From a virus, in IMG/VR virus record IMGVR_UViG_3300045284_000173, positions 1 through 43,893 of that record: a stretch of 43,893 nt of DNA; one strand, 5' to 3'. The notes below the pieces were generated by a model. It was not told the DNA's origin. It was given only the letters and a program-made list of their open reading frames with translations, and made no database searches. Position numbers and translations under genes: made by a program. Shown piece after piece: positions 5,000-43,893 of this stretch (position 1 is its first letter; each line of letters starts with the position of its first letter).

Positions 5000-5184
5000 G
5001 CATGGATGACTGGGGTTGGAGTTCATGGAATCCGCCTTCCTTATATAGGTGTGGTCTGTGTGGTGAGGAGCATACGTCCCTTGTCTTGCATAAATGCAAG
5101 AGGGGTACGAACTGGCGTCAATCGTCCGAACCCCTCATCATGAAGGCCGTCGCAGAGTATCTGCAAGCATGGTTTGAGTTATGA
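4996..5184 (+). CDS. 62-residue zinc-ribbon-like protein
   Basis: A short frame with an ATGA overlap to the ERCC4 gene and another to the polymerase gene at 5181. It begins with a Trp-rich segment (DDWGWSSWN), then CGLCGEEH and H-x-C (LHKC), giving C-x2-C ... H-x2-C ligands. The second half is helical. It may be a DNA- or protein-binding accessory of the replication block; no closer identity is evident. Confidence 0.6.
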   Translation: MSMDDWGWSSWNPPSLYRCGLCGEEHTSLVLHKCKRGTNWRQSSEPLIMKAVAEYLQAWFEL

Positions 5185-7217
5185 GAGAGCCGCGAGCGAC
5201 CATTGATTTTGAAACCCGGTCCACGGTCAGTCTCAAGAAGGTCGGGACGTGGCGATACTCTGTTGACCCGACAACCGAAATCCTCTGCCTATGCTACCGA
5301 TTGCCCTATTGGGAGGAAGGTCGGGTCGAAGTCTGGACCCCCGAGTTCTACCAGACCGGAACCGGACCCTCCTCCTTCTGGGGCTTCAATGAACTCATGG
5401 AGTGGGTCGAGTCTGGGGGTCTGCTTGAAGCCCACAATGCGTGGTTCGAAAGGTGTATATGGCAGAATATTCTTGTTCCCTCGTATGGTTTTCCCCGAGT
5501 GGACGGCGTAAAGGGTCAATGGAGATGCAGTGCAGCCAAGGCAGCGGCGGCTGCTTTGCCGAGGAGTCTCGCCGACGCGATAAACGCTTTGGGTCTGTCC
5601 GTTGTCAAGTCCGACTCCGGCAAGAAGGTCATGCAAAAGATGACCAAACCCCGGAAGGTCAGGAAAAAGGAGTTAGCATCTGGAATCGAGCCTGCCGCGA
5701 TTCTGTATCACGAAAGTCAGGAACTGACTGACCAACTCCTTGCCTACTGCAAACAGGACGTATTGGCTGAGGAAGCCCTCAGTCACGTCTTACCCGACCT
5801 GTCACCCGACGAACAACAGATTTTCGACCTCGATGCAGCCATTAATGAACGGGGGTTTCAACTTGACCAAGAAGCAGTTCTTTGCGCACTTCGACTCCTT
5901 GGGAGTGAAACGAAGTCGCTCAACCGAGAGTTGGAGAATCTTACAGAAGGAGCCGTCAAGAAAGCCAGCGAGCGAGCAAAGCTTCAAGCGTGGTTCCAAA
6001 CTCAAGGCCTCGAACTTGAAGACACGACGAAAGAGACGGTCAATAGTCTCCTCGACATCCGACCGGGTGTTGACGCGCCTCCCAGTGCGACCGTCAGACC
6101 CCTCGAAATCCTCCAAGCGGTCGGCCAATCCAGCACCGCCAAATACGAGTCAGCCAAACTCAACGCCGACCCCTCCGACTGGCGGGTCCGGGGTGGTCTT
6201 TTATATCACGGGGCGAGAACAGGTCGATGGTCGGGTAAGGGAGTCCAGCCGCACAATTTCCTACGAGGAACTATTAAGGACATCGATAGGCACTGGGCCG
6301 CGCTTACTACTGGAGTTCAAACAGATTGTGAGGAGGCTGGAGGGACTCGAATGTCTGCCTTGGCCCAAGGACTCCGAGGAATAATTATCGCGGGACCAAA
6401 CCAGTCACTTTATGTCGCCGACTATAACGCCATCGAAGCCCGAGTGCTTCCCTGGCTAGCCGACGATACGGAGTTGTTAAATGACTTCAGACAAGGCACA
6501 GACCCTTATCTCAAGATGGCGTCCACAATTTACGGATATCCTTGTAACCGATTGGACCACGGTCAAGAGCGGGCATTGGGGAAAGTGGCAATTCTTGGTT
6601 TGGGCTACCAAATGGGGGCGTCGAAGTTTCGAGATTCAGCATGGACGATGGGGAAGGTTCACATTGACGATGACTTGGCTCAAAGGACCGTTGACCTATA
6701 CCGAGAGTACCGATGGAAAATAAAGCACCTGTGGTGGGCGATGCAGGATGCCGCGATGGAAGCTGTCAACGGACCTTCGGTAACGGTTGGCAAGGTCCGG
6801 TGGTCACGGTCTGGTCGTTTCTTACACGTTACCTTGCCTTCTGGGCGAAACTTATCGTATCCGGACCCCGAAGTCAGGCTGAGAGAGACGCCATGGGGCG
6901 AGAAGCGACCATCAATGACCTTTATGGGGGTGGACACTCGAACCCATAAATGGAGCCGCCAAACGACCTACGGCGGCCTCCTCGTCGAAAACGTCACGCA
7001 GGCTGTCGCCCGTGACATCATGGCGTATGCTATGCTTCGACTGGAGCGAGGCGGCATCTATAAGCCAGTCCTGTCCGTTCACGATGAGGTCATCTCGGAA
7101 GCCGACCCCGGCATAGATATTGAAGACTATGTGAGTGAATTGACGACGTTGCCGGCGTGGGCAAACGGGTGCCCTATCGCTGCCGAAGGATGGACAGGAG
7201 GTCGTTACAGAAAATGA
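5181..7217 (+). CDS. Family A DNA polymerase with 3'-5' exonuclease domain
   Basis: This encodes 678 residues. The exonuclease begins at once with TIDFETRS (D-x-E at about 9-11), followed by the HNAWFE motif (about 85) and CKQDV near residue 193. Polymerase motif A is VADYNAIEARVLPWLA (about 411-426). Motif B is RALGKVAILGLGYQMG (about 463), and motif C is SVHDEV (about 631). All catalytic carboxylates are present, so both activities are expected. Length and order fit the phage replicative PolA branch. It is the core replicase, in an operon with recombination nucleases; the stop overlaps the next small gene (ATGA). No 5'-3' exonuclease domain is present. Confidence 0.95.
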   Translation: MREPRATIDFETRSTVSLKKVGTWRYSVDPTTEILCLCYRLPYWEEGRVEVWTPEFYQTGTGPSSFWGFNELMEWVESGGLLEAHNAWFERCIWQNILVPSYGFPRVDGVKGQWRCSAAKAAAAALPRSLADAINALGLSVVKSDSGKKVMQKMTKPRKVRKKELASGIEPAAILYHESQELTDQLLAYCKQDVLAEEALSHVLPDLSPDEQQIFDLDAAINERGFQLDQEAVLCALRLLGSETKSLNRELENLTEGAVKKASERAKLQAWFQTQGLELEDTTKETVNSLLDIRPGVDAPPSATVRPLEILQAVGQSSTAKYESAKLNADPSDWRVRGGLLYHGARTGRWSGKGVQPHNFLRGTIKDIDRHWAALTTGVQTDCEEAGGTRMSALAQGLRGIIIAGPNQSLYVADYNAIEARVLPWLADDTELLNDFRQGTDPYLKMASTIYGYPCNRLDHGQERALGKVAILGLGYQMGASKFRDSAWTMGKVHIDDDLAQRTVDLYREYRWKIKHLWWAMQDAAMEAVNGPSVTVGKVRWSRSGRFLHVTLPSGRNLSYPDPEVRLRETPWGEKRPSMTFMGVDTRTHKWSRQTTYGGLLVENVTQAVARDIMAYAMLRLERGGIYKPVLSVHDEVISEADPGIDIEDYVSELTTLPAWANGCPIAAEGWTGGRYRK

Positions 7218-7835: not shown

Positions 7836-7971
7836 CCGTTGGCTTCGTTTCTACGGTGCCGTCAGCGTCATCATTTACTTCGTCATCATCCTGCTTTCGG
7901 CGGCTAGCGTAGCCGTCACATGGAGTTACTGTGGGTCAACCACGCACTATACTCTGGGACATCGAGACTAG
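7828..7971 (+). CDS. 47-residue single-pass membrane protein
   Basis: Starts at ATG 7828, overlapping the preceding gene by eight bases, with AAAAGGA as ribosome-binding site. A basic N-terminus (PDRWLRFYG) is followed by about 24 hydrophobic residues (VSVIIYFVIILLSAASVAV) and a short tail. The N-terminal charges suggest an N-in orientation or an uncleaved signal anchor. Its 3' end overlaps the exonuclease gene by 41 bp. Confidence 0.5.
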   Translation: MPDRWLRFYGAVSVIIYFVIILLSAASVAVTWSYCGSTTHYTLGHRD

Positions 7972-8701
7972 TCACAATCTCGTCGCGGTCTTCAAGTTGC
8001 TCCAGCAGGATTACCTGCCCGCTGAAAACATCCGACAGGAACGATTTATCATTTCAGCCGCATGGAAAGAACTCGGAAAGGGACCCGTTCACGCGACTAG
8101 TATTCTTGATAGCCCTGCTACTTTTGTTCGGAATAAGTGTTCCGACGCTCATGTGGTGCGGGTTCTGCATCGCGTGCTCTCTGATGCCGACATCATTGTG
8201 GCCCATAACGGGGACGCCTATGACATCAAGTTTACCGAAGCCCGTATGTTGTATCACGGTTTGCCCCCGCTGCCACCAATCCTCAAGATTGACACACTTA
8301 AGGTCGCCAGGGACCGATTCCTATTTAATGCAAATAACCTCGACTACCTTGGGAAGTTCCTGAAGGTCGGTCAGAAGAAGCACACCAAGACCGGCCTCTG
8401 GCTCAAGGTCCTAGACGGCGATAAGGCCGCCATCAGGGAGATGGTTCGCTACAATAAGCAGGATGTCCTGCTCCTTGAGCGGGTCTTTAACAAACTCCGT
8501 CCTTATATCGCAGCCTTCCCGAATCGCGAACTTTTCGGTCAGACAGCCGGATGTCCGCGCTGTGGGAGCCTGAAGGTCCACGCCCGTGGCATTCACCGTG
8601 CATTAACCCAACTCTATCAGCGGTTTCAATGTCAAGCGTGCGGTGGCTGGTTCCGCGAGAAGAAGGCCAGTAATCTGAAGGTCCACACGAGAACACTCTA
8701 A
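7931..8701 (+). CDS. DEDD-type 3'-5' exonuclease with C-terminal zinc ribbon
   Basis: This encodes 256 residues from GTG. The RNase H-like exonuclease motifs are ILWDIETS (D-x-E, about 8-15), IIVAHNGDAYDIKF (about 89-102) and YNKQDVLLLE (about 179, the Y-x3-D of the DEDDy class). After residue about 205 comes a separate zinc ribbon, CPRCGSLKVH ... CQACGGW. The split architecture suggests a predicted nuclease of the YprB/RNase H-like group with a nucleic-acid-binding tail. It could proofread or degrade host or phage DNA ends beside the PolA protein, which already has its own exonuclease. The stop overlaps the next start (TAATG). Confidence 0.75.
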   Translation: MGQPRTILWDIETSHNLVAVFKLLQQDYLPAENIRQERFIISAAWKELGKGPVHATSILDSPATFVRNKCSDAHVVRVLHRVLSDADIIVAHNGDAYDIKFTEARMLYHGLPPLPPILKIDTLKVARDRFLFNANNLDYLGKFLKVGQKKHTKTGLWLKVLDGDKAAIREMVRYNKQDVLLLERVFNKLRPYIAAFPNRELFGQTAGCPRCGSLKVHARGIHRALTQLYQRFQCQACGGWFREKKASNLKVHTRTL

Positions 8702-28435: not shown

Positions 28436-29413
28436 TTAGGTGATGGCCGTCACGACACCCAGCATACGCCGGTTGGTCGTAATGAGGTTGCAGCGTGCCG
28501 ACACCTGATAGATGTCAACAGTCTGGTTGGCGGGACGAATCGGACCCGTCATCTTGTACCAATGTCCCTTGAGATAGGCAAGCTTCAAGAACTGGGGATG
28601 ATACATATACATCAGACCCGAAGGCACCGCGATATCGTAGCTAATGGCCGACGCCTTGAACTTCAGAACCTCATTCTTGAAGCCACCATCACCGGACGAC
28701 TTGTCAGTGAATCGCTCGTTGACCGTCAGTAGACCTTCGAACCCCTGGAATACGGTCTGGGTGGTCGTGATATACTGAGGATGTTTGCCAGACATGCCAT
28801 TGCTGGACGAGTTATAGATCGACCGCATGGTTGCACGCAGGTTATCGAACGCCGAACTCGACTGTGCACCACTTGCCTGCTGGTTGCGCCAGAAGGAGAA
28901 GTTGGCCGCATTGATCGAGCCGACTGTGCCAGTCGTCGGAGTCGAAGAAATCAGGAGTTGCAGACCACCCAATTCCTTGCCGCCCGTCCCAGATCCGTCC
29001 GAATACAACGACGTATTGATGACGGAATCCAGCGTGGACCGCAGGTTCTTCAACTTGCCATCCAGTAGATCAAACTTTTTGGCCGAACCCTGAACAACAC
29101 CGTTCTCCAGTTCCGACTGAAGCACGGTGCCTGCGACTTCCTTCCAGGCAAATTCTGCCCGGTCGAACACTTCAGAACGCTGCGTCGAGATCGTCTCGGT
29201 GTCTGAATAAAACCCAACAGTCCCGTTGAGCGCATACTCCAGACTGGCCGTAATGACATCGCCACCATCCACGCTCATGAAGGACTCGCCCTTCTTCAGC
29301 GTGTTCAACAGCCAATAATCATTAAAGATGTTATCCTCGGGCTTGTCATTGACCAGGGCATTCCATGCCGCAGCCACGATCATCCCGTCATTCGGAACGT
29401 TTACAGGAGACAT
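28436..29413 (-). CDS. Major capsid protein, HK97-type
   Basis: This encodes 325 residues. It follows the scaffold gene by 18 bases and precedes the decoration gene. Features are an N-terminal segment (NDGMIVAAAWNALVNDKPED), a long spine helix region (FDRAEFAWKEVAGTVLQSELENG) and, late in the chain, PSGLMYMYHPQFLKLAYLKG, the pattern of P22/HK97-like capsid proteins of podoviruses. The order terL - portal - scaffold - capsid supports the call. Confidence 0.8.
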   Translation of the reverse strand: MSPVNVPNDGMIVAAAWNALVNDKPEDNIFNDYWLLNTLKKGESFMSVDGGDVITASLEYALNGTVGFYSDTETISTQRSEVFDRAEFAWKEVAGTVLQSELENGVVQGSAKKFDLLDGKLKNLRSTLDSVINTSLYSDGSGTGGKELGGLQLLISSTPTTGTVGSINAANFSFWRNQQASGAQSSSAFDNLRATMRSIYNSSSNGMSGKHPQYITTTQTVFQGFEGLLTVNERFTDKSSGDGGFKNEVLKFKASAISYDIAVPSGLMYMYHPQFLKLAYLKGHWYKMTGPIRPANQTVDIYQVSARCNLITTNRRMLGVVTAIT

Positions 29414-31834: not shown

Positions 31835-33894
31835 TGGACTTGTGGTTTCACACCCGGTCGCTGTCCTGACAGATCAGCCGATTGCTGATTAAGAGGTCGG
31901 ACCTTATCTGCAGGCCCACCGTGGGGAGCGGCCCCATCCTGATGGGTTTGCTGTGGCGCGATCTTTCCGCTCGCATCCCGAAGTCCAAGGATCATCTGAC
32001 TATTCAGTTCCTGAGCACTCATCTGTACGGCATCGGGCGTGATCTTGATGCCACATTGCGCCAGGATTTCGAGGACCATCGGAGCCTGCGGACCGAGCAA
32101 GTCATCACCCTTGAAAGTAAAACCGACTGACGGGTCTGGTTTCTTCGGTTCGGGCGGCGGAACGATAATATCGACAGGATTCAGTCCGGCCTTGACCATC
32201 AAATTCTCAAGAAGCTTCCCCCGGTCCACACGAGAGTCCTTTGCCACCATCTGATATAGGTCAAGCGCGAACTTTCGTTCCGTAGCGGCATCGAGCTTCA
32301 CCTGAGAGTCTGGGCGTGCTTTGAAAACGAACCTCCCGTCCCAATTCTGCTTATCCCACTTCGCCCACTCTTGCGCGGCAGCCGGTCCAATCAGTGGAAT
32401 GGCCAACTGCGGCGTGAGGAACCGGCAGACGAGCGAACTAAATTTCTGAACCCCCTTAATATACCACGCTAAGACGGCTCGTCGTTCGGCGTCGAGTCGG
32501 ACGGATCGGATTTTGTCAACGGTCCCGATTTCGGTCGCCGTTCGGTTCGAGTCACCGGATACACCAGCGCCAATGCTATCCATACCAAGAGTGCGATCCA
32601 GATCATGCTGGATATAATCATTGGCCGTATAACTCCCTCGGGTTTGGGTGCCTTGTGCGACTTGCACCATGATTTTGTCGATACCCGCCATCAGGGCGTC
32701 ACCCTCGACAGGAATTAGAGCACCAATTGTGCCATTTTGAATCTTCTCGAGGGCTTCGGGCGTCAGTTTAGCCGAGTCATAGAGCATTCGAGGGATGTTG
32801 GCGTCTCGCTCTTGGACCTGTTGGGTGCGAAATGTACACAATTCTCGGACAAGCGGCCGAATCATCGAACTATCGGACGGCACATAGGCGCTATCGGGCA
32901 GCGAACGGATTGCCAACACATGAATCGGATAGCCAATCATGCTGTTCGCGCTCAGACGACCATTCGGCAGTAAGGTCTGATAGGGGTTGTCAACCGTCTT
33001 CTCGCAGAACCCGTCAAAGCCGTCCACCAAAATGTGGCGTCGAATCAGTCGCGGGTTCTTTGCGTCCTGATCGAAGATACTCGCATAATACCAGATTTCG
33101 GTCCCCTCGACATAGGGAATGGTCGTCACCTGACTCTGGTCCTGCACCGATTCCAGTACCTTCTTGTCTTTTTCGGTCGTCGGCGTGTAATCTACCGGCA
33201 AATTCATGATCGATTCTGCGTCTGGAACTGGCAACCGAAAATCCATAGCCAAGTAGGGCGACTTATCGTAATCGGTGTCCGTAAAGTCCGCAGGAATACG
33301 AAATTTTTTCGAAGGAATCCGGTCCCAATACCATTGTTCTGCTATCGGAACAGGAATCGCCCCTTGAGGGTCCATCTGTGGGTCCTTCGCCATCATATCT
33401 GGCGTCGGAACCGTCTGTCCCTGAGCCGCCGAGAACCCGATCTTCGTCGCTCCTACCCCGGCCGTCACCAAACAATCGAGAATCACCTTGTGGATCGTCG
33501 GCAAAACGTTCGCTTCCTCTAGCAAATCATTCATGATCTCACGGTGCGCCATGATAATTGGGTCGGCCGGAAGGGTCATTGGAGGTGGCTGGCCGGGAAT
33601 CATTGCAGCCGGTGCCTTCTCCATGAAAACGCCCTTCGCGCTCAACATGAGATCGGGCGTCTCGTAGAACAACTGCGATTTCTTGACCTCGGCCGACGTA
33701 AAGTCCGAATTCGTATTGACGTAATTTGAGTTATGGTCGGTCGCGATCAGGGCGTCCGGAGACTTACCCTGAAAATACCGAAGATTTTCTTCCCAATCCC
33801 GCCAATGGTTATTCTCAGCCACCCGCCGTGATCGAGTAATCTCCTCAGCCCACGCTTCGGCCTTCGAAAAGTCTACAGACAGATTATTCGGCAT
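31831..33894 (-). CDS. Portal protein
   Basis: This encodes 687 residues. The N-terminal region has EENLRYFQGKSPDALIATDH, then a conserved-looking WYWDRIPSKKFRIPADFTD (about 187). A long helical core follows, with RTQQVQERDANIPRMLYD and RTATEIGTVDKIRSVRLDAERR (the last split by a turn). The low-complexity C-terminus is Gln-rich. Gene order terL-portal and length are typical for short-tailed phage portals. Its start overlaps the terL stop (TAATG). Confidence 0.8.
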   Translation of the reverse strand: MPNNLSVDFSKAEAWAEEITRSRRVAENNHWRDWEENLRYFQGKSPDALIATDHNSNYVNTNSDFTSAEVKKSQLFYETPDLMLSAKGVFMEKAPAAMIPGQPPPMTLPADPIIMAHREIMNDLLEEANVLPTIHKVILDCLVTAGVGATKIGFSAAQGQTVPTPDMMAKDPQMDPQGAIPVPIAEQWYWDRIPSKKFRIPADFTDTDYDKSPYLAMDFRLPVPDAESIMNLPVDYTPTTEKDKKVLESVQDQSQVTTIPYVEGTEIWYYASIFDQDAKNPRLIRRHILVDGFDGFCEKTVDNPYQTLLPNGRLSANSMIGYPIHVLAIRSLPDSAYVPSDSSMIRPLVRELCTFRTQQVQERDANIPRMLYDSAKLTPEALEKIQNGTIGALIPVEGDALMAGIDKIMVQVAQGTQTRGSYTANDYIQHDLDRTLGMDSIGAGVSGDSNRTATEIGTVDKIRSVRLDAERRAVLAWYIKGVQKFSSLVCRFLTPQLAIPLIGPAAAQEWAKWDKQNWDGRFVFKARPDSQVKLDAATERKFALDLYQMVAKDSRVDRGKLLENLMVKAGLNPVDIIVPPPEPKKPDPSVGFTFKGDDLLGPQAPMVLEILAQCGIKITPDAVQMSAQELNSQMILGLRDASGKIAPQQTHQDGAAPHGGPADKVRPLNQQSADLSGQRPGVKPQVQ

Positions 33895-35525
33895 TATCGG
33901 CTTTCAGTACCGAGAAGAGGGACAGTTATTTGTCGTCCTTGTCCTCGGAACCACGCAGGACTGTAGGGTTCGATGGCTTTGGGTTTGGGCGTACTGCGCC
34001 ACCGCACGCCGGACACACCGCCGTATCGGGCGGCATCGACCCAATGGTCGTCTCCCTTGGTATCAATATCTTCGGGGTCATTTTTAGCCTGTAGCTGGGC
34101 TGGTAAAGTCCTAACGCCGTAAGTGCATCGCGGAGATACCAGTAGCCAGGGTCGGCCGTCCGGAGCCAGTCTAAACAGCTCATGTAGGCGCTGCCAGCCC
34201 GACCGACGATCATTGTTGGCCTTAGCGACGGGGATTCGGTATTTGAGAAAGGTATCCGCGATGGATTCACCGATCTGTCCGGTGTTCTGCCAGCAAGCGG
34301 GATCTGTCCAACAGGTCGGAACCTTTGGGAGTCCTCGGTCGGTGCATCTCCGCTTAATCTCTGTCGCCACGTCTTTGACAGTGAGTTTAGATCCAACCAC
34401 ATCGCCATTGAACTTGTATTCGTCCTCTATGTAGTAACGTCCGTCGGCAAGTGCGACCCACCAGAGCACGACGCCGGGAGCGTTGCGACCCCAGTCCATG
34501 GATAGGAACCGGGGACACTCGATAGATACAGGCCCGAGATCAACAACATGCTTGGCGACTCGGAACTCATCAAAGAATTGTCCTTCGAAGACTCCCCAAT
34601 CGCCATCGAGAAGTTGTCGTTTACGGTTTTCACGCAACCCTGCAAGGGATTGTTCATACCCACCTGCCTTGATATAGGGGTTATCTCTCAGGTACGCGGG
34701 GAAGAACGCCCACTGACTCGCATCATACGTGCTGAATTCCTCGGGGTCTGGACTTTTGTCAATAAAGAAGTCCTTGACCCAAGCACCGCCACGCCCACCA
34801 GGGTTACTAGCAGCGAGAATAAAAGATCCATCATAATCGTCCGCGAGATTCCCTCTCAACTCGACCATCGCGGGGTTGGTCGTCCGTGCTCGTGTGAACA
34901 GTTCTAGCATCAGGTCACGTGGGAACGTCACGAGTTCGTCCGGCACTATGACATCATACTCACTAGAGAGGTAATTTTCGATATCTGCTGCTGCATCGAG
35001 GTAACCGCATCGGATAATCGCTGGAGGTCCATGAGGATGGTCGAAGGTAGCGATTTTGTCGGTACGGTTCCAGTCTGCGCCTCGTTCAGCGAGTTCATGT
35101 CCCATGAATCGGAGATGGGATTGGTCGAGGTCCTTAAGGGTCCTGCGTAAAAGTAAGGCATGAAGCCCAGGGACTTGTCGGGCAAAGAGATAGAGCTGCT
35201 CCCGCAAAAACCGGCTTTTGCCCGGGCCTGCTGCGCCTCCAGCCAAGAGTCTACGTATTCTTGAGTCGTAGGCTGCTTCGTGCCAAACAGTTTGTGCAGG
35301 AGCCGGAACATAGAGGTACTTTTGGACGCGTCCATCTTTATCCTGCGTAATCGTGGCATACTTGAGTTGTCGTAAGGCACACGGTGGGTTCGGACACCAC
35401 CAACACCCTTGAATATGGACTAACGAATGTCCGGACCAACAGCACTTCGCACTCGGGTGGACCAAGGCAGGACCGCCAGTCCGGTCGGGCGACAGGACTG
35501 ACGGTGTGTTGGGGTAGGTCATCAT
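33894..35525 (-). CDS. terL: Terminase large subunit
   Basis: This encodes 543 residues. Walker A is GGAAGPGKS (about 94-102) and Walker B is YDVIVPDE (about 189). The coupling motif region is ILAASNPGG (about 234) and the nuclease aspartate is in LSMDWGRN (about 346), with later acidic motifs TCWTDPACW and GDDHWVDAARYG. The first 55 residues hold a Cys/His cluster (CCWSGH ... CWWCPNPPC) that looks like an added zinc finger before the ATPase. The promoter at 35531-35559 would place the transcript start at or next to the start codon, so translation may be leaderless. The motor and nuclease are complete. Confidence 0.9.
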   Translation of the reverse strand: MMTYPNTPSVLSPDRTGGPALVHPSAKCCWSGHSLVHIQGCWWCPNPPCALRQLKYATITQDKDGRVQKYLYVPAPAQTVWHEAAYDSRIRRLLAGGAAGPGKSRFLREQLYLFARQVPGLHALLLRRTLKDLDQSHLRFMGHELAERGADWNRTDKIATFDHPHGPPAIIRCGYLDAAADIENYLSSEYDVIVPDELVTFPRDLMLELFTRARTTNPAMVELRGNLADDYDGSFILAASNPGGRGGAWVKDFFIDKSPDPEEFSTYDASQWAFFPAYLRDNPYIKAGGYEQSLAGLRENRKRQLLDGDWGVFEGQFFDEFRVAKHVVDLGPVSIECPRFLSMDWGRNAPGVVLWWVALADGRYYIEDEYKFNGDVVGSKLTVKDVATEIKRRCTDRGLPKVPTCWTDPACWQNTGQIGESIADTFLKYRIPVAKANNDRRSGWQRLHELFRLAPDGRPWLLVSPRCTYGVRTLPAQLQAKNDPEDIDTKGDDHWVDAARYGGVSGVRWRSTPKPKAIEPYSPAWFRGQGRQITVPLLGTESR

Positions 35526-35530
35526 GTAGC

Positions 35531-35559
35531 ATTATAATGCAATCGTGTAAGAATTACAA
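35531..35559 (-). promoter_or_regulatory. Sigma70-type promoter for terL and the late arm
   Basis: On the minus strand TTGTAA (35554-35559) and TATAAT (35531-35536) are separated by 17 bp. The -10 is a perfect consensus hexamer and the -35 matches TTGACA at four of six positions. The expected transcript start is about 35524, at the terL start codon. The spacer overlaps a 13-bp motif (GTAATTCTTACAC) that is repeated in the opposite orientation at 36769-36781. Confidence 0.65.
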
Positions 35560-35567
35560 GGTAAATA

Positions 35568-36758
35568 TTACTCGATGATACGACTCTGCCAGGCCGCTGC
35601 AATGTCTCGGGTCAGCCCATCCATCACTAAACTCCGCTGGCTGAAGTAGTTATGAAAGACCATCCCGGCGACTTCGGCCGAGTAATGTTGGGCAAACCGC
35701 CGAGCCATTGCGGCGTCGTACTGCGGGGCCGTCCCATTTGTCCCGAATTTCGGCGGCTCACTGATGATTAGCGGAACCTGCACATTATCCCGAATCTGAA
35801 GGGTAACCGGACTCGCCACCGTATCCAATAAGGCAGCCGGAAGGTCCTGTCGGGGATGAAACTCCGCGAAGGATGCAGTGCCAATCGGCAGAGGCTGATA
35901 CGGATTCGGGTCGGCGGTCCAGCTACCCTTACTCCACGTCACGCGAGGGTCCACCATTGTGTCATCCCGCGTGCCATTTTTATCTCGTTGGTTTCCATAC
36001 GACAGCGCAATAACCGTTCCTTGAACCGTTTCACCAACCGCCTTCCAAAGGTTCGCTCGCTTTGTGAAATCCGGTACAATATCCTGAGCGTCCACAAACA
36101 CATTGGCATTTAGAACGATACCTTGTGTATTTACGAAGTCTGTGAAAGGTCGAATCTGGTTAAAGACGCCAGAATCCAATGTATTAATCGTGGCAATCGT
36201 ATTCTGGGCCTTCGACCCCATAAACCACGTACGCCACATGTCAAACTTCAGGTCCTTAGACTCCTGCACGATATCCAATAGCCCGTGGTCGCCATCCAAC
36301 CACCGCCTAAAGGCAAAAAATTGGTCAATGCCCCGAAGCACTCTTCGTGATCCGTTCGCATGGATGAAGTCTCGGCCTCGGATTTGCAGGGGTTCGGCCT
36401 TCGACTCAACCAAACCATCAAGGATTAGTGTGATCCCCAATCCAACCACTCCAGGCCTCGTCAGGACATTTCCGGACTTCTGGAAGACCTCCCACTCTCC
36501 GGGATTCGTTCGTGCTCCTGAACGCGATTCTAAGCTTCCTGAGGGGGTTTCTGTGAGCCATCGGTTGGCGGCGAGGAATCGGACAGCCACATGGTCGTCA
36601 ACGGGCACCAGTTCGACCTCTTCCCACGACCCAATGACCTTCCGATCCACGTATACTGGAAAATCTGAGTCCGGTCGCGTATCCGGAACCCTCGGTTCCA
36701 CGCCGATAGCCAGCCCATTCAGCCGAATCCCTAATGCCATACCCCGACCACCATGCAA
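35568..36758 (-). CDS. Fascin-like and glycoside-hydrolase-like protein
   Basis: This encodes 396 residues (ATG 36758; a second ATG at 36740 is an alternative). An N-terminal module, about 50-100, reads EVELVPVDDHVAVRFLAANR ... GEWEVFQKSG, like a beta-trefoil actin-crosslinking (fascin-like) repeat. It is followed by a possible GH5-like barrel (FIHANGSRRVLRG, FFAFRRWLDGDHG, LKFDMWRTWFM). No signal peptide. It is the first gene of the late arm, upstream of terL. Candidates are a virion-borne glycan-active enzyme or a tailspike-like depolymerase. Catalytic Glu residues could not be fixed by eye. Confidence 0.5.
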   Translation of the reverse strand: MHGGRGMALGIRLNGLAIGVEPRVPDTRPDSDFPVYVDRKVIGSWEEVELVPVDDHVAVRFLAANRWLTETPSGSLESRSGARTNPGEWEVFQKSGNVLTRPGVVGLGITLILDGLVESKAEPLQIRGRDFIHANGSRRVLRGIDQFFAFRRWLDGDHGLLDIVQESKDLKFDMWRTWFMGSKAQNTIATINTLDSGVFNQIRPFTDFVNTQGIVLNANVFVDAQDIVPDFTKRANLWKAVGETVQGTVIALSYGNQRDKNGTRDDTMVDPRVTWSKGSWTADPNPYQPLPIGTASFAEFHPRQDLPAALLDTVASPVTLQIRDNVQVPLIISEPPKFGTNGTAPQYDAAMARRFAQHYSAEVAGMVFHNYFSQRSLVMDGLTRDIAAAWQSRIIE

Positions 36759-37148
36759 TTCTTACGCCGTAATTCTTACACGGTGCGTAGAATACACACG
36801 GTATTCGACGCAGAAGTTACTGCCACAAAGTGGCACAACTGCCATGTCATGACACTGACAGTTTCTCATTCTTTTGGCCAAAATCTTGAGTTACTGCCAT
36901 GGCAGTAATCAGTCTTTCTGCCACCCTTACTGCCACTTATTTTTAGGGTTAAGTGTCGTGCGCCCAATAGGTTATCCTGCTGCCACACTTACTGCCAAAC
37001 CCTCTAGATAGCCGTCCCAAGTGTCATTTCTCCCTGTATCTATAGATACAGGGAAAACACAGAGAAAATTATTTCTACTGACAGTTCCTCTGCTGCCGCA
37101 GGTCTGGCCCACACATTGCATTAGGTCAGGTCAAAGGAGTCCGACATC
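36759..37148. promoter_or_regulatory. Divergent control region with TTACTGCCA repeats and palindromes
   Basis: No gene is seen in these 390 bp between the two arms. TTACTGCCA occurs at 36817-36825, 36891-36899, 36927-36935 and 36989-36997. The 36891 copy meets its complement to form the perfect palindrome TTACTGCCATGGCAGTAA (36891-36908), and variants lie at 36836 and 36915. TGTCATGACA (36845-36854) and a 24-bp perfect palindrome with core CTGTATCTATAGATACAG (37031-37054) follow. GTAAGAATT appears twice on the minus strand at 36761-36781. AAAGGAG near 37134 serves the next gene. Operators or an iteron-type origin are both possible; no firm promoter was identified. Confidence 0.65.
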
Positions 37149-37274
37149 ATGAATATCGTCTTCGAAACCCTCTTGAACGCGCTGTGGTCCTACCTGCAAA
37201 AGCACCCCGACCAGATCGAGCACATCATTGAACTGTTGGTCCAGAAGGCTGTCACAGCTCTAGAGGCCAAGTGA
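37149..37274 (+). CDS. 41-residue small protein at the head of the lysis module
   Basis: ATG with an AAAGGAG ribosome-binding site nine bases upstream. The peptide is an amphipathic helix (NIVFETLLNALWSYLQKHPD) plus a second helix (IIELLVQKAVTALEAK). I have seen similar short proteins before endolysin genes in phages; role unknown. It is followed at 37271 by a 14-codon GTG frame that is probably not a gene. Confidence 0.6.
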   Translation: MNIVFETLLNALWSYLQKHPDQIEHIIELLVQKAVTALEAK

Positions 37275-37319
37275 TCGCCTGGTTGTTCGGGTCGCTCGTG
37301 GAGATCTTGGATTAGCCTC

Positions 37320-37664
37320 ATGACCCTCCGCGAGAAACAGAGTCTATTTGGGCGACTGGTCGGCCAACTGCTGGGGTACATCTATACGTCAGGCTATGAG
37401 ATTACCTTCGGCGAGACCTATCGGTCGCCCGAGGAGGCTGCTCGCCTCGCCCACCTCGGCCTTGGGATTACCCAATCCCTCCATACCTCCCGCCTTGCTA
37501 TCGACTTGAACCTCTTCCATAATGGGACATATTTGCCGAATGCCGAAGACCATCGGTTTTTTGGCCTGTGGTGGGAATCTCAGCACCCACTTTGCCGCTG
37601 GGGTGGACATTTCACTAGACCGGATGGCAACCACTATTCCCTCGAACATGAAGGCCGTCAGTAA
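37320..37664 (+). CDS. M15-family peptidase, endolysin
   Basis: This encodes 114 residues. The zinc-binding signatures of the D-Ala-D-Ala carboxypeptidase/L,D-endopeptidase (VanY-like) group are SLHTSRLAIDLNLF (His and Asp, about 57-70) and HYSLEHEG (about 105). ETYRSPEEAARLAHLG precedes them as in the family. No signal peptide, so release needs a holin; a membrane protein gene overlaps its 3' end. It probably cleaves peptidoglycan cross-links during lysis. It lies in the plus-strand arm, opposite the late genes. Confidence 0.85.
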   Translation: MTLREKQSLFGRLVGQLLGYIYTSGYEITFGETYRSPEEAARLAHLGLGITQSLHTSRLAIDLNLFHNGTYLPNAEDHRFFGLWWESQHPLCRWGGHFTRPDGNHYSLEHEGRQ

Positions 37665-37827
37665 TCGAGTATTCGGCTGGGCCTGTATATTTCTAGGGGT
37701 CCCATTGCTGGTCCTCCCCGGACCTGGTATCCCCTTTATTCTGTTAGGCTTAGGCCTCCTCGCTCCCACCACACCTTGGGCTGCTAAGCTCATCAATAGA
37801 ATCAAGAAGTTCATCAGTCGATCCTGA
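37648..37827 (+). CDS. PGPGW-type small membrane protein, possible holin
   Basis: The start is placed at ATG 37648, overlapping the endolysin stop, giving 59 residues. A hydrophobic N-terminal span (FGWACIFLGVPLLVLPGPG) contains the PGPG turn of the PGPGW transmembrane family. A second span (PFILLGLGLLAP) and a basic tail (AAKLINRIKKFIS) follow. Overlap with the endolysin suggests a lysis role such as a pinholin or holin. PGPGW proteins are otherwise of unknown function. Confidence 0.6.
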   Translation: MKAVSNRVFGWACIFLGVPLLVLPGPGIPFILLGLGLLAPTTPWAAKLINRIKKFISRS

Positions 37828-38228
37828 CACCCTTCATTGCCCCGCCCGCCCCGGATGGGTCCCTCGGCGATTCGTCCGCCGGAGGGTCGGCCTGAGGTCT
37901 GGCTGATTGGATGGTCCTGACCAGCTGCCATACTGTCAATCCTACATTTTTGTCACCCATTATGTAGGCCAGGATGTGAGTGTCGGGGACTCAAGGTTGG
38001 CCCGCTCATTCCACTTACAACTGTAGTAGGCCCTGTCCGCAATCCATACACAGGGTGAACGTCAGAGTTACACTCGTGTGTAGATGTGACGCGAACGGTC
38101 CTGGTATAGATTGTGCGCTATTGGTGTGACATGACACTTGTATGGTTTTCATACGGTGGTATGGTCTGTGCTATCTTGTCTGGCAGCAACCACGGCAGAA
38201 ACTGCCAAAGCTGAAAGAAGGTGTAACG
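37828..38228. promoter_or_regulatory. Intergenic region, 400 bp, with inverted repeats
   Basis: No convincing gene. An inverted repeat CCTACAT/ATGTAGG lies at 37941-37968, GGCAG-AAA-CTGCC at 38194-38206, and a GC-rich imperfect stem at about 37860-37890. A weak sigma70-like pair TTGTAT (38138-38143) and TATGGT (38160-38165), spacer 16, precedes the gene at 38229. The region may hold a second early promoter. Confidence 0.4.
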
Positions 38229-41600: not shown

Positions 41601-41833
41601 CCATGAGTCATGTGCGAATTCGACATGCGGGCGCAGAAAAGTGGTATCGGAATGTCAGAAATGTTTGGGAAGCGAACGGCTACGTTCATATTGATGTTGG
41701 GCCGGTCCACCCCTACCTCGTTCACTATTGGCGAGAGAGTGGACGGGTATCGGTCCTTATCTGTGAGACGGACGAGGATGTGACCCGGAGTCTCAGGGAG
41801 GAGATGGGATGGCCGACCCTTACTCCGACGTAG
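41597..41833 (+). CDS. Small hypothetical protein
   Basis: This encodes 78 residues (GTG 41597; ATG 41603 is an alternative). HVRIRHAGAEKWYRNVRNVW, then DVGPVHPYLVHYW. Mostly beta, overlapping the helicase gene by 25 bp. Unrecognised. Confidence 0.5.
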   Translation: MTMSHVRIRHAGAEKWYRNVRNVWEANGYVHIDVGPVHPYLVHYWRESGRVSVLICETDEDVTRSLREEMGWPTLTPT

Positions 41834-42912
41834 ACATTCTGACGTTCAAAGAACTGTTAGCCAGACCTGAACCGCCTTGGCTCATTGAGGATGTCTTACG
41901 AGCGGACCAAGTAGGCGTGGTGTATGGCCCACCGAATAAAGGCAAGACCTTCCTGGTCTTGGACTGGGGGTTGCATGTGGTAACCGGCTTGAACTGGGCC
42001 GGTCATGCTATCACACAAGGGCCGGTTCTGTATATGGCCGGGGAGGGGGCGTTTAGTTTGCAGAAGCGGGCGGGCGCATGGGCCGCATACCATAAGATGG
42101 ATGATATCGCCATGTATTTTCAGTGCAGGCCGCTAGACATGCGGTCGGACGAGACGCTTGAACAGCTACAGGACGCGCTAGACAATTGGGCCGACCACGA
42201 ATCGGGCGAGCCGCAGTTGAATCCTCGGCTGGTGATTGTAGATACTTTGTCGCAGTTCTTTGGCGGCGGTGACGAAAATAGCGCGGACATGGCGCAGTTC
42301 GTTCAGGCATGCAGGTCGCTCAGTCAGCGCAATGAAACCGCCGTGCTGATTGTCCACCACACGAATAAGGGCGGTATCTCCGAACGAGGACATACGGCAC
42401 TCCGAGGCAATACCGATGTAATGTTCGGTGTAGAGGCCATTGAGGAACACGAGAAGTTGGTTGGGCTGCGGATCACGAACGACAAGCACAGGGATGACCC
42501 CAAGCGCGAAGCGATGACACTACGGATTATCCACTGCCAGGATAGTTTAGTGATTTCCGGCCTGATGTCGGAGAAGGTGTCACGACATGTCGTGACAGTG
42601 CCATCAGAAAAGCTGAAGGATTTGCTACTCTGCGCGTTGACAGTCGAGGATAAGGAACGGGAACTGGTGCCGCTGTCGGATTGGCAGATGACCAGTCCGC
42701 TCGCGGTTCGGACCTTCTACCGCAATCTCCATAAGTTGTTGGATATGAAGCTCGTGAAGACCGCAGGGCGGGGGTTCTATCGTCTGACCCCAGATGGACG
42801 AGAAACCGCCTTTGCGTTACTGCCAGACGGTCAGATGGCAGTAAGAGTAGTGACCACAACCTCATCTTCTGTATCTATAGATACAGAAGGGAGTGGCAAG
42901 GAGGGCACATGA
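41809..42912 (+). CDS. RepA/AAA_25-type replicative helicase
   Basis: This encodes 367 residues. A P-loop VYGPPNKGKTFL (about 43) follows the FKELLARPEPPWLIEDVL lead-in typical of this group. The Walker B-like strand is LVIVDTLSQFF (about 143) and LIVHHTNK (about 182) is the sensor strand. The C-terminal third reads as a winged-helix-like domain (VEDKERELVPLSDWQ, FYRNLHKLLDMKLVKTA). The family includes plasmid RepA helicases and phage helicase/primase-associated ATPases. The final 40 codons overlap motifs also found in the divergent control region. Confidence 0.75.
   Translation: MADPYSDVDILTFKELLARPEPPWLIEDVLRADQVGVVYGPPNKGKTFLVLDWGLHVVTGLNWAGHAITQGPVLYMAGEGAFSLQKRAGAWAAYHKMDDIAMYFQCRPLDMRSDETLEQLQDALDNWADHESGEPQLNPRLVIVDTLSQFFGGGDENSADMAQFVQACRSLSQRNETAVLIVHHTNKGGISERGHTALRGNTDVMFGVEAIEEHEKLVGLRITNDKHRDDPKREAMTLRIIHCQDSLVISGLMSEKVSRHVVTVPSEKLKDLLLCALTVEDKERELVPLSDWQMTSPLAVRTFYRNLHKLLDMKLVKTAGRGFYRLTPDGRETAFALLPDGQMAVRVVTTTSSSVSIDTEGSGKEGT
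42578..42889. promoter_or_regulatory. Motif cluster within the helicase gene 3' end
   Basis: Three inverted repeats lie within 312 bp. They are TGTCACGACATGTCGTGACA (42578-42597), a perfect 20-bp palindrome; TTACTGCCA and TGGCAGTAA (42817-42844) spaced by 10 bp; and a 24-bp palindrome with core CTGTATCTATAGATACAG (42866-42889). The second and third are also found in the divergent region at 36.8-37.05 kb. No comparable structure is expected of ordinary coding sequence. Confidence 0.65.

Positions 42913-43235: not shown

Positions 43236-43893
<658 letters not shown>

What the first reader, a model, noticed from the sequence alone, without database searches (positions are those of the whole stretch)
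42578..42889. Same motif pair inside the helicase gene, 6 kb away
TTACTGCCA ... TGGCAGTAA (spaced by 10 bp) and CTGTATCTATAGATACAG both recur here, with a third 20-bp palindrome TGTCACGACATGTCGTGACA. The divergent region holds TGTCATGACA, a shorter relative. Two motifs recurring together at two loci is unlikely to be chance. It could mean looping, a second operator, or a replication element built into the 3' end of its helicase gene.
Basis: partly seen in the sequence, partly recalled or inferred. Interest (0 to 1): 0.65.

Follow-up and report, generated by a model that had tools for sequence, protein, structure and literature searches.

The report
Doubled phage replication-origin signal
The end of this phage's helicase gene doubles as a DNA signal that looks like a replication origin, made of short repeats and a hairpin; many phages carry such a signal right after the same kind of gene, and this phage has an unusual second copy 6 kb away.

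Summary
The only perfect zero-spacer palindromes of 18 bp or more in 43 kb lie in two places: the divergent intergenic region (36.8-37.05 kb) and the last 335 bp of the RepA-type helicase gene (41809-42912). The letters are private to this phage; the anatomy is not. In 73 other phage loci with a relative of this helicase, the 260 bp after its stop codon tends to hold phage-specific short repeats (iterons). In 34 of the 73 it also holds a hairpin with the same C-TWTA-G centre as CTGTATC-TATA-GATACAG, arms covarying (0 of 3085 control windows). Some add DnaA boxes. Four named complete genomes have the iteron cluster once, at the helicase 3' end. Best reading: a replication origin, with iterons for an initiator and a hairpin acting like the RSF1010 ssi sites or pRN1 stem-loop. 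This phage differs in having two copies, one inside coding sequence, as SPP1 has oriL in gene 38 plus oriR. No replication assay exists, and neither copy here has a perfect DnaA box.

The parts
41809..42912 (+). RepA-type (AAA_25) replicative helicase gene, 367 aa, with a low-confidence C-terminal winged-helix-like domain (about residues 267-337) and a disordered tail
   Evidence: Pfam AAA_25 E 5e-38; only PDB sequence match is RSF1010 RepA, E 7e-5, also the top fold match; model; closest relative 39%
42578..42597 (.). 20-bp perfect palindrome TGTCACGACATGTCGTGACA over the codons of the linker between helicase and C-terminal domains; role unclear
   Evidence: linker residues 255-265 pLDDT below 50
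42817..42844 (.). Inverted iteron pair TTACTGCCA-N10-TGGCAGTAA inside the helicase C-terminal codons
   Evidence: rare codons
42866..42889 (+). 24-bp palindrome (hairpin with C-TATA-G centre) in the codons of the helicase tail, 20 bp before the next gene's start codon
   Evidence: same centre as the family hairpin; tail pLDDT about 30
36759..37149 (.). Divergent intergenic region carrying the fuller copy of the element
   Evidence: cumulative GC-skew minimum at 37852
36817..36825 (+). Iteron TTACTGCCA
36845..36854 (.). TGTCATGACA, short relative of the 20-bp palindrome (weak)
36891..36908 (.). Back-to-back inverted iterons TTACTGCCATGGCAGTAA
36927..36935 (+). Iteron TTACTGCCA (an imperfect one, TTTCTGCCA, at 36915-36923)
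36989..36997 (+). Iteron TTACTGCCA
37031..37054 (+). 24-bp palindrome (hairpin with C-TATA-G centre), second copy

Best explanation
The motifs form an origin-of-replication element of a type that sits directly 3' of RepA-type (AAA_25) helicase genes in many phages. Short phage-specific iterons (here TTACTGCCA) would be bound by the phage initiator, possibly the helicase's own C-terminal domain. The adjacent hairpin, with a near-constant C-TWTA-G centre and covarying arms, would be exposed once the duplex is melted and serve as a structured start site for the primase or for helicase loading. This phage carries two copies in the same order and strand. The fuller one (5 exact iterons plus hairpin) lies in the divergent intergenic region and is probably the main origin. 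The smaller one (2 iterons plus hairpin) is built into the last codons of the helicase and is probably a secondary origin or control site. Shown: the motifs, their excess over chance, the doubling, the family-wide element with its position and covariation. Inferred: that it is an origin, what binds it, and the division of labour between the copies.
For: Window: all long palindromes and 7 of 7 iterons fall in the two places; DNA-level constraint on the helicase codons, placed over disordered protein. Family: in helicase loci, 31 of 32 C(TWTA or variant)G hairpins with arms of 7 or more in 754 kb fall within 250 bp after the helicase stop, in 17 unrelated sequence clusters; 34 of 73 loci against 0 of 3085 control windows. 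Iterons: top 8-mer 4.1 against 1.85 copies, block in the top 1% of windows in 42 of 73 loci; DnaA boxes 31 in 23 kb against 27 in 710 kb. Covariation 75 two-sided changes against 28 in shuffles. Closest relative L188/L195 has iterons plus a TATA-centred hairpin just after its helicase. Named genomes RHph_N65, 1N2-2, CRP-831 and XX1924 have the iteron cluster once, at the helicase 3' end. Helicase is of RSF1010 RepA type, whose origin uses iterons plus priming hairpins.
Against: No replication data. The window's element is atypical: its hairpins lack the flanking inverted iterons seen in 17 of 18 relatives (27% of controls), and it has no perfect DnaA box. The fuller copy lies in a divergent promoter-type region rather than next to the helicase. 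39 of 73 relatives lack the strict hairpin. The DnaA-box excess comes largely from one related subset. The C-terminal winged helix is low confidence. The innermost six pairs of the covariation test were part of the selection rule.
Confidence: 0.62

Rival explanations
1. The motifs are operators: a phage repressor or activator binds the palindromes in the divergent promoter region and an auxiliary set inside the helicase gene, perhaps joined by looping, to control the two arms of the genome.
For: The fuller copy lies in the only divergent gene junction of this kind in the window; palindromes suit dimeric regulators; many relatives also have their block between the helicase and further genes.
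Against: Across relatives the centre is conserved and the arms vary with compensation, the reverse of operator half-sites; strict linkage to a replicative helicase; promoter scans at chance level at both places; no regulator recognised among the proteins scanned.
Confidence: 0.18
2. The hairpin acts in RNA: a terminator, attenuator or processing site at the 3' end of the helicase message, whose loop is fixed because a protein or enzyme reads it.
For: Loop orientation is TTTA in the helicase sense in all 20 informative IMG/VR cases, never TAAA; compensatory arms.
Against: Iterons and DnaA boxes share the same block; terminator scans find nothing at the helicase copy and chance level at the other; no Rfam family matches; in Alteromonas phage XX1924 the loop is reversed relative to the helicase; CTATAG centres read the same on both strands.
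Confidence: 0.1
3. The element is a site for another DNA process: packaging (pac), partition, or resolution of genome multimers.
For: Iterons and palindromes also occur at partition and resolution sites; one copy is about 1.3 kb from the terminase gene.
Against: Linkage is to the replicative helicase, not to terminase: 842 kb of terminase-selected loci hold only three such hairpins, all in one locus. No partition or recombinase gene was recognised in the proteins scanned.
Confidence: 0.06

Closest known systems
RSF1010 (IncQ) oriV with RepA helicase, RepC iterons and ssiA/ssiB hairpins
   Same: Same helicase family; iterons for the initiator plus small hairpins where priming starts (PMC4234260, PMC4434180)
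   Different: RSF1010 has three separate proteins and one ssi site per strand; its sequence was not held, so loop and arms were not compared. No RepC or RepB' was recognised in the window
Plasmid pRN1 stem-loop 3' of the primase-helicase gene orf904
   Same: A stem-loop starting 54 bp after the replication gene, needed for replication, with pairing but not sequence conserved; the authors report a similar stem-loop 3' of the replication proteins of phage BIP-1 (PMC4234260)
   Different: About 100-nt stem-loop with a large loop and no iterons; SF3 helicase with archaeo-eukaryotic primase, not a RepA-type helicase
Phage SPP1 oriL (inside gene 38) and oriR
   Same: Two origin elements of similar make-up, one inside a replication gene and one non-coding (PMC6316719)
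   Different: Gene 38 is an origin-binding protein, not the helicase; [quoted passage not shown] about 13 kb apart; no C-TWTA-G hairpin was tested for
Phage P4 ori1/crr with the alpha protein; phage lambda ori
   Same: P4 alpha binds origin repeats through a C-terminal winged helix (PMC4234260); lambda iterons lie inside a replication gene (PMC11447400)
   Different: Different helicase classes and repeats; the paired ori1/crr layout of P4 is from memory and its sequences were not compared here

Membership tests
Origin-like element 3' of RepA-type phage helicase genes (defined here) | Located at the 3' end of a RepA-type helicase gene | tested here: met
   Copy at 42817-42889 lies inside the last codons; relatives have it 30-165 bp after the stop
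Origin-like element 3' of RepA-type phage helicase genes (defined here) | Hairpin with C-TWTA-G (or close variant) centre | tested here: met
   Both window copies are C-TATA-G with 10-bp arms
Origin-like element 3' of RepA-type phage helicase genes (defined here) | Cluster of phage-specific iterons beside the hairpin | tested here: met
   TTACTGCCA: 5 exact copies at the divergent site, 2 at the helicase site
Origin-like element 3' of RepA-type phage helicase genes (defined here) | Inverted iterons flanking the hairpin on both sides | tested here: not met
   17 of 18 relatives share an inverted 6-mer across the hairpin, both window copies score 0; a usual rather than a defining feature, since the control rate is 27%
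Origin of replication (function) | Initiation of DNA synthesis at the site | not testable with these tools
   No read-depth or plasmid assay available
DnaA-dependent origin | Perfect DnaA boxes (TTATNCACA) in the block | tested here: not met
   Enriched in some relatives; the window has only one-mismatch TTATCCACT at 42527, one of nine such sites
RSF1010-type oriV | RepA-family helicase | tested here: met
RSF1010-type oriV | RepC initiator and RepB' primase genes | tested here: inconclusive
   None recognised among the proteins scanned in Pfam and PHROGs; several early proteins have no known family and not every ORF was scanned
Repressor operator pair with looping | Conserved half-sites in relatives, at promoters, with a cognate regulator | tested here: not met
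   Arms vary and covary, centre conserved; no promoter excess; no regulator recognised

The most novel reading that the evidence does not exclude
Many tailed phages that encode a RepA-type helicase or primase-helicase share an undescribed class of replication origin just 3' of that gene. Each phage has its own iterons, but they share a hairpin whose centre (C-TWTA-G) is fixed while its arms drift with compensation. This phage has doubled the origin and written one copy into the codons of the helicase itself.
Probability: 0.5. Interest if true: 0.75.

Novelty: new variant of a known kind. Interest (0 to 1): 0.64.

Why it matters
If right, the origin of replication of a broad set of uncultured and cultured phages can be located by a simple rule: look for iterons and a C-TWTA-G hairpin within 260 bp of the RepA-type helicase stop codon. 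The fixed loop with free, covarying arms points to recognition of a structure rather than a sequence, which makes the link between the RSF1010 ssi hairpins, the pRN1 stem-loop and phage origins directly testable. The window adds a case where origin letters constrain codons and where a second copy exists.

Tried and rejected
Exact searches for the palindromes in IMG/VR (1 hit each) and GTDB species genomes (2 hits) are about what chance would give: L090 and L005 are coding-sequence coincidences. L003 has CCTGTATCTATAGATACAGG in a divergent intergenic region of a different phage, but the one relative found did not cover that region and its record shows no such helicase, so it was not used. Terminase relatives (L010 at 65%, L011-L013) were uninformative: no helicase match in their records, and the 8.9-kb L010 fragment has a different arrangement upstream of terminase. 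A helicase-only search for close relatives found none. Promoter and terminator scans gave chance-level results. Rfam gave nothing for the element. The RSF1010 sequence was not held under the accession tried. Simple duplication of the intergenic block into the gene was considered and is unlikely: only the motifs match, spacing and surroundings do not. DnaA-box similarity in the window itself was dropped as evidence (nine such sites).

Full report
The window is a 43,893-base IMG/VR virus record. Structural genes run leftward from 36758 to about 9958 (terminase 33894-35525, major capsid 28436-29413). Early genes run rightward from 37150 to the end and on from base 1 to about 9.8 kb (helicase 41809-42912, DNA polymerase A 5181-7217, exonuclease 7931-8701). 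Both contig ends lie in the same kind of GGC-rich repeat, which would encode an alanine-rich protein. The genome is therefore probably circular or permuted and was cut there by assembly (inference).

In 43 kb there are four perfect zero-spacer palindromes of 18 bp or more, against 0.2 expected, and all four are in the two places named: 36891-36908 and 37031-37054 in the divergent intergenic region, and 42578-42597 and 42866-42889 in the helicase gene. The two copies of CTGTATCTATAGATACAG each extend to 24 bp, with outer pairs that differ between copies but remain complementary. TTACTGCCA occurs seven times exactly, five at the first place and two at the second. Scored by shared 8-, 9- or 10-mers, the helicase 3' end is the best match to the divergent region anywhere in the window. 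Given the protein, the DNA choices are improbable: none of 4000 synonymous recodings gave two such palindromes, and the sites use rare codons. The model of the helicase places the 20-bp palindrome over a low-confidence linker and the 24-bp palindrome over a tail of pLDDT about 30, so the DNA signal sits where the protein can tolerate it.

The literal sequences are private to this phage. Exact searches of IMG/VR and of 84,980 species genomes return one or two hits, about what chance gives for an 18-mer in that much DNA; two inspected ones are coding coincidences. The lead came from the replication module instead. A DNA polymerase search found L188 (full record L195), which shares a 39% identical helicase, a 55% identical polymerase and two other early genes. 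Immediately after its helicase stop codon it has TAGGGGTA iterons in both orientations and the strongest inverted repeat in its 20 kb, CTCCCTCTCT(CTATA)AGAGAGGGAG. The letters differ; the place, the iterons and the TATA centre are the same.

That prompted a test on the 80 IMG/VR loci already fetched with a distant relative of the helicase. Perfect inverted repeats with arms of 9 or more are about 15 times denser around the helicase 3' end than elsewhere in the same loci (29 in 40 kb against 29 in 615 kb). Their centres are not random: C(TTTA)G 20 times, C(TATA)G 7 times and C(TATAA)G 3 times, none of which is among the commonest centres of 207 background hairpins. Counted strictly, 31 of 32 such hairpins in 754 kb fall within 250 bp after the stop codon, in 17 clusters of unrelated sequence; 34 of 73 loci have one with arms of 6 or more, against 0 of 3085 control windows. 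In 20 aligned hairpins, including both from the window, the closing C, first T, last A and closing G of the centre are invariant while the arms change with compensation: 75 two-sided changes against 28 in shuffles. The innermost six pairs were part of the selection rule, so the independent evidence is mainly the seventh pair (18 of 20 paired, 8 compensatory) and the variety of arms. The loop letters were also part of how these 20 were picked; the unbiased evidence for the loop is.

The same 260 bp holds iterons, different in each phage. The most repeated 8-mer occurs 4.1 times on average against 1.85 in background windows, and the block ranks in the top 1% of windows in 42 of 73 loci. Consensus DnaA boxes TTATNCACA are enriched about 35-fold (31 in 23 kb against 27 in 710 kb), though many come from one related subset, and the window lacks a perfect one. 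In 17 of 18 elements an inverted 6-mer is shared across the hairpin, against 27% of control positions; the window's two hairpins lack this. Named genomes show the block too. Rhizobium phage RHph_N65 has about ten GGCGGAGAT iterons and a CCCCTATATAGGGG palindrome. Idiomarinaceae phage 1N2-2 has GGTACA iterons and ACACACCTATATAGGTGTGT. Roseobacter phage CRP-831 has GTATAAA iterons and AAACCCTTTAGGGTTT. Alteromonas phage XX1924 has TGGTTCA iterons and GGCTCTCTAAAGAGAGCC. In each the main iteron cluster is at the helicase 3' end and nowhere else. CRP-406 has GGCTGGAAA iterons and an AACCCTAAGGGTT palindrome.

Iterons, DnaA boxes in some members, a covarying hairpin and constant linkage to a replicative helicase together point to an origin of replication. 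The helicase belongs with RSF1010 RepA: that is its only sequence match in the PDB, and RepA structures are its top fold matches. In RSF1010, RepC binds iterons, RepA unwinds and RepB' primes next to the ssiA and ssiB hairpins (PMC4234260 and PMC4434180). In plasmid pRN1 a stem-loop starting 54 bp after the primase-helicase gene is required for replication, its base pairing but not its sequence is conserved, and the authors report a similar stem-loop after the replication genes of phage BIP-1 (PMC4234260). The proposed mechanism is therefore: initiator on the iterons, local melting, hairpin extruded on one strand, priming or helicase loading at its fixed loop. The loop reads TTTA in the helicase sense in all 20 informative IMG/VR cases, with XX1924 as an exception.

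What sets this phage apart is the doubling. The helicase-linked copy is reduced to one inverted iteron pair and the hairpin, and the reading frame runs through it. The fuller copy lies 5.8 kb upstream in the divergent region, in the same order and strand, close to the cumulative GC-skew minimum (37,852; maximum 11,338), although gene orientation also changes there. None of the relative loci examined has two hairpins of this kind, though most are fragments. SPP1 gives a precedent for a paired arrangement with one origin inside a replication gene, where the second is thought to stall forks and trigger concatemer formation (PMC6316719). Whether the window's copies divide labour in that way is a guess.

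Limits. No replication assay exists. The library of papers is open-access only, so a description elsewhere may have been missed; none was found. The locus set came from a capped candidate list. The C-terminal winged helix is a low-confidence model. The operator reading is kept at 0.18 because the divergent copy is where a repressor would act, and one site can serve both purposes.

Noticed in passing
window 43640-43893 and 1-440: Both contig ends lie in GGC-rich repeats that read as an alanine-rich repeat protein in frame with 43236 onward and with the first ORF; the genome is probably circular or permuted and was broken by assembly inside this gene.
   Followed up: partly
L003 7664-7683: A different phage has CCTGTATCTATAGATACAGG, the same core palindrome, in its own divergent intergenic region upstream of small terminase; possibly chance, possibly another origin of this type.
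   Followed up: partly
window 35544-35569 and 36757-36782: An imperfect inverted repeat (26 nt, 81%) built of AATTCTTAC units flanks the 396-aa gene between terminase and the divergent region.
   Followed up: no
window 37150-37827: The first rightward genes after the divergent region look like lysis genes (an M15-type peptidase at 37320-37664 and a small membrane protein), ahead of the replication genes.
   Followed up: no
L139 9089-9260, L142, L151, L152, L095: Besides the hairpin, the post-helicase blocks of many relatives share a GGGGCAAAA-like stretch between two iteron groups; its role was not examined.
   Followed up: no
L195 11839-11911: The closest relative carries a tRNA gene shortly downstream of its origin-like block (Rfam tRNA, 51.8 bits); the window has none.
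   Followed up: no
L011 15545-15658: A terminase relative has a dense array of AAGATCTT palindromes next to CGTAATACGACCGTATTACG, about 4 kb downstream of its terminase.
   Followed up: no
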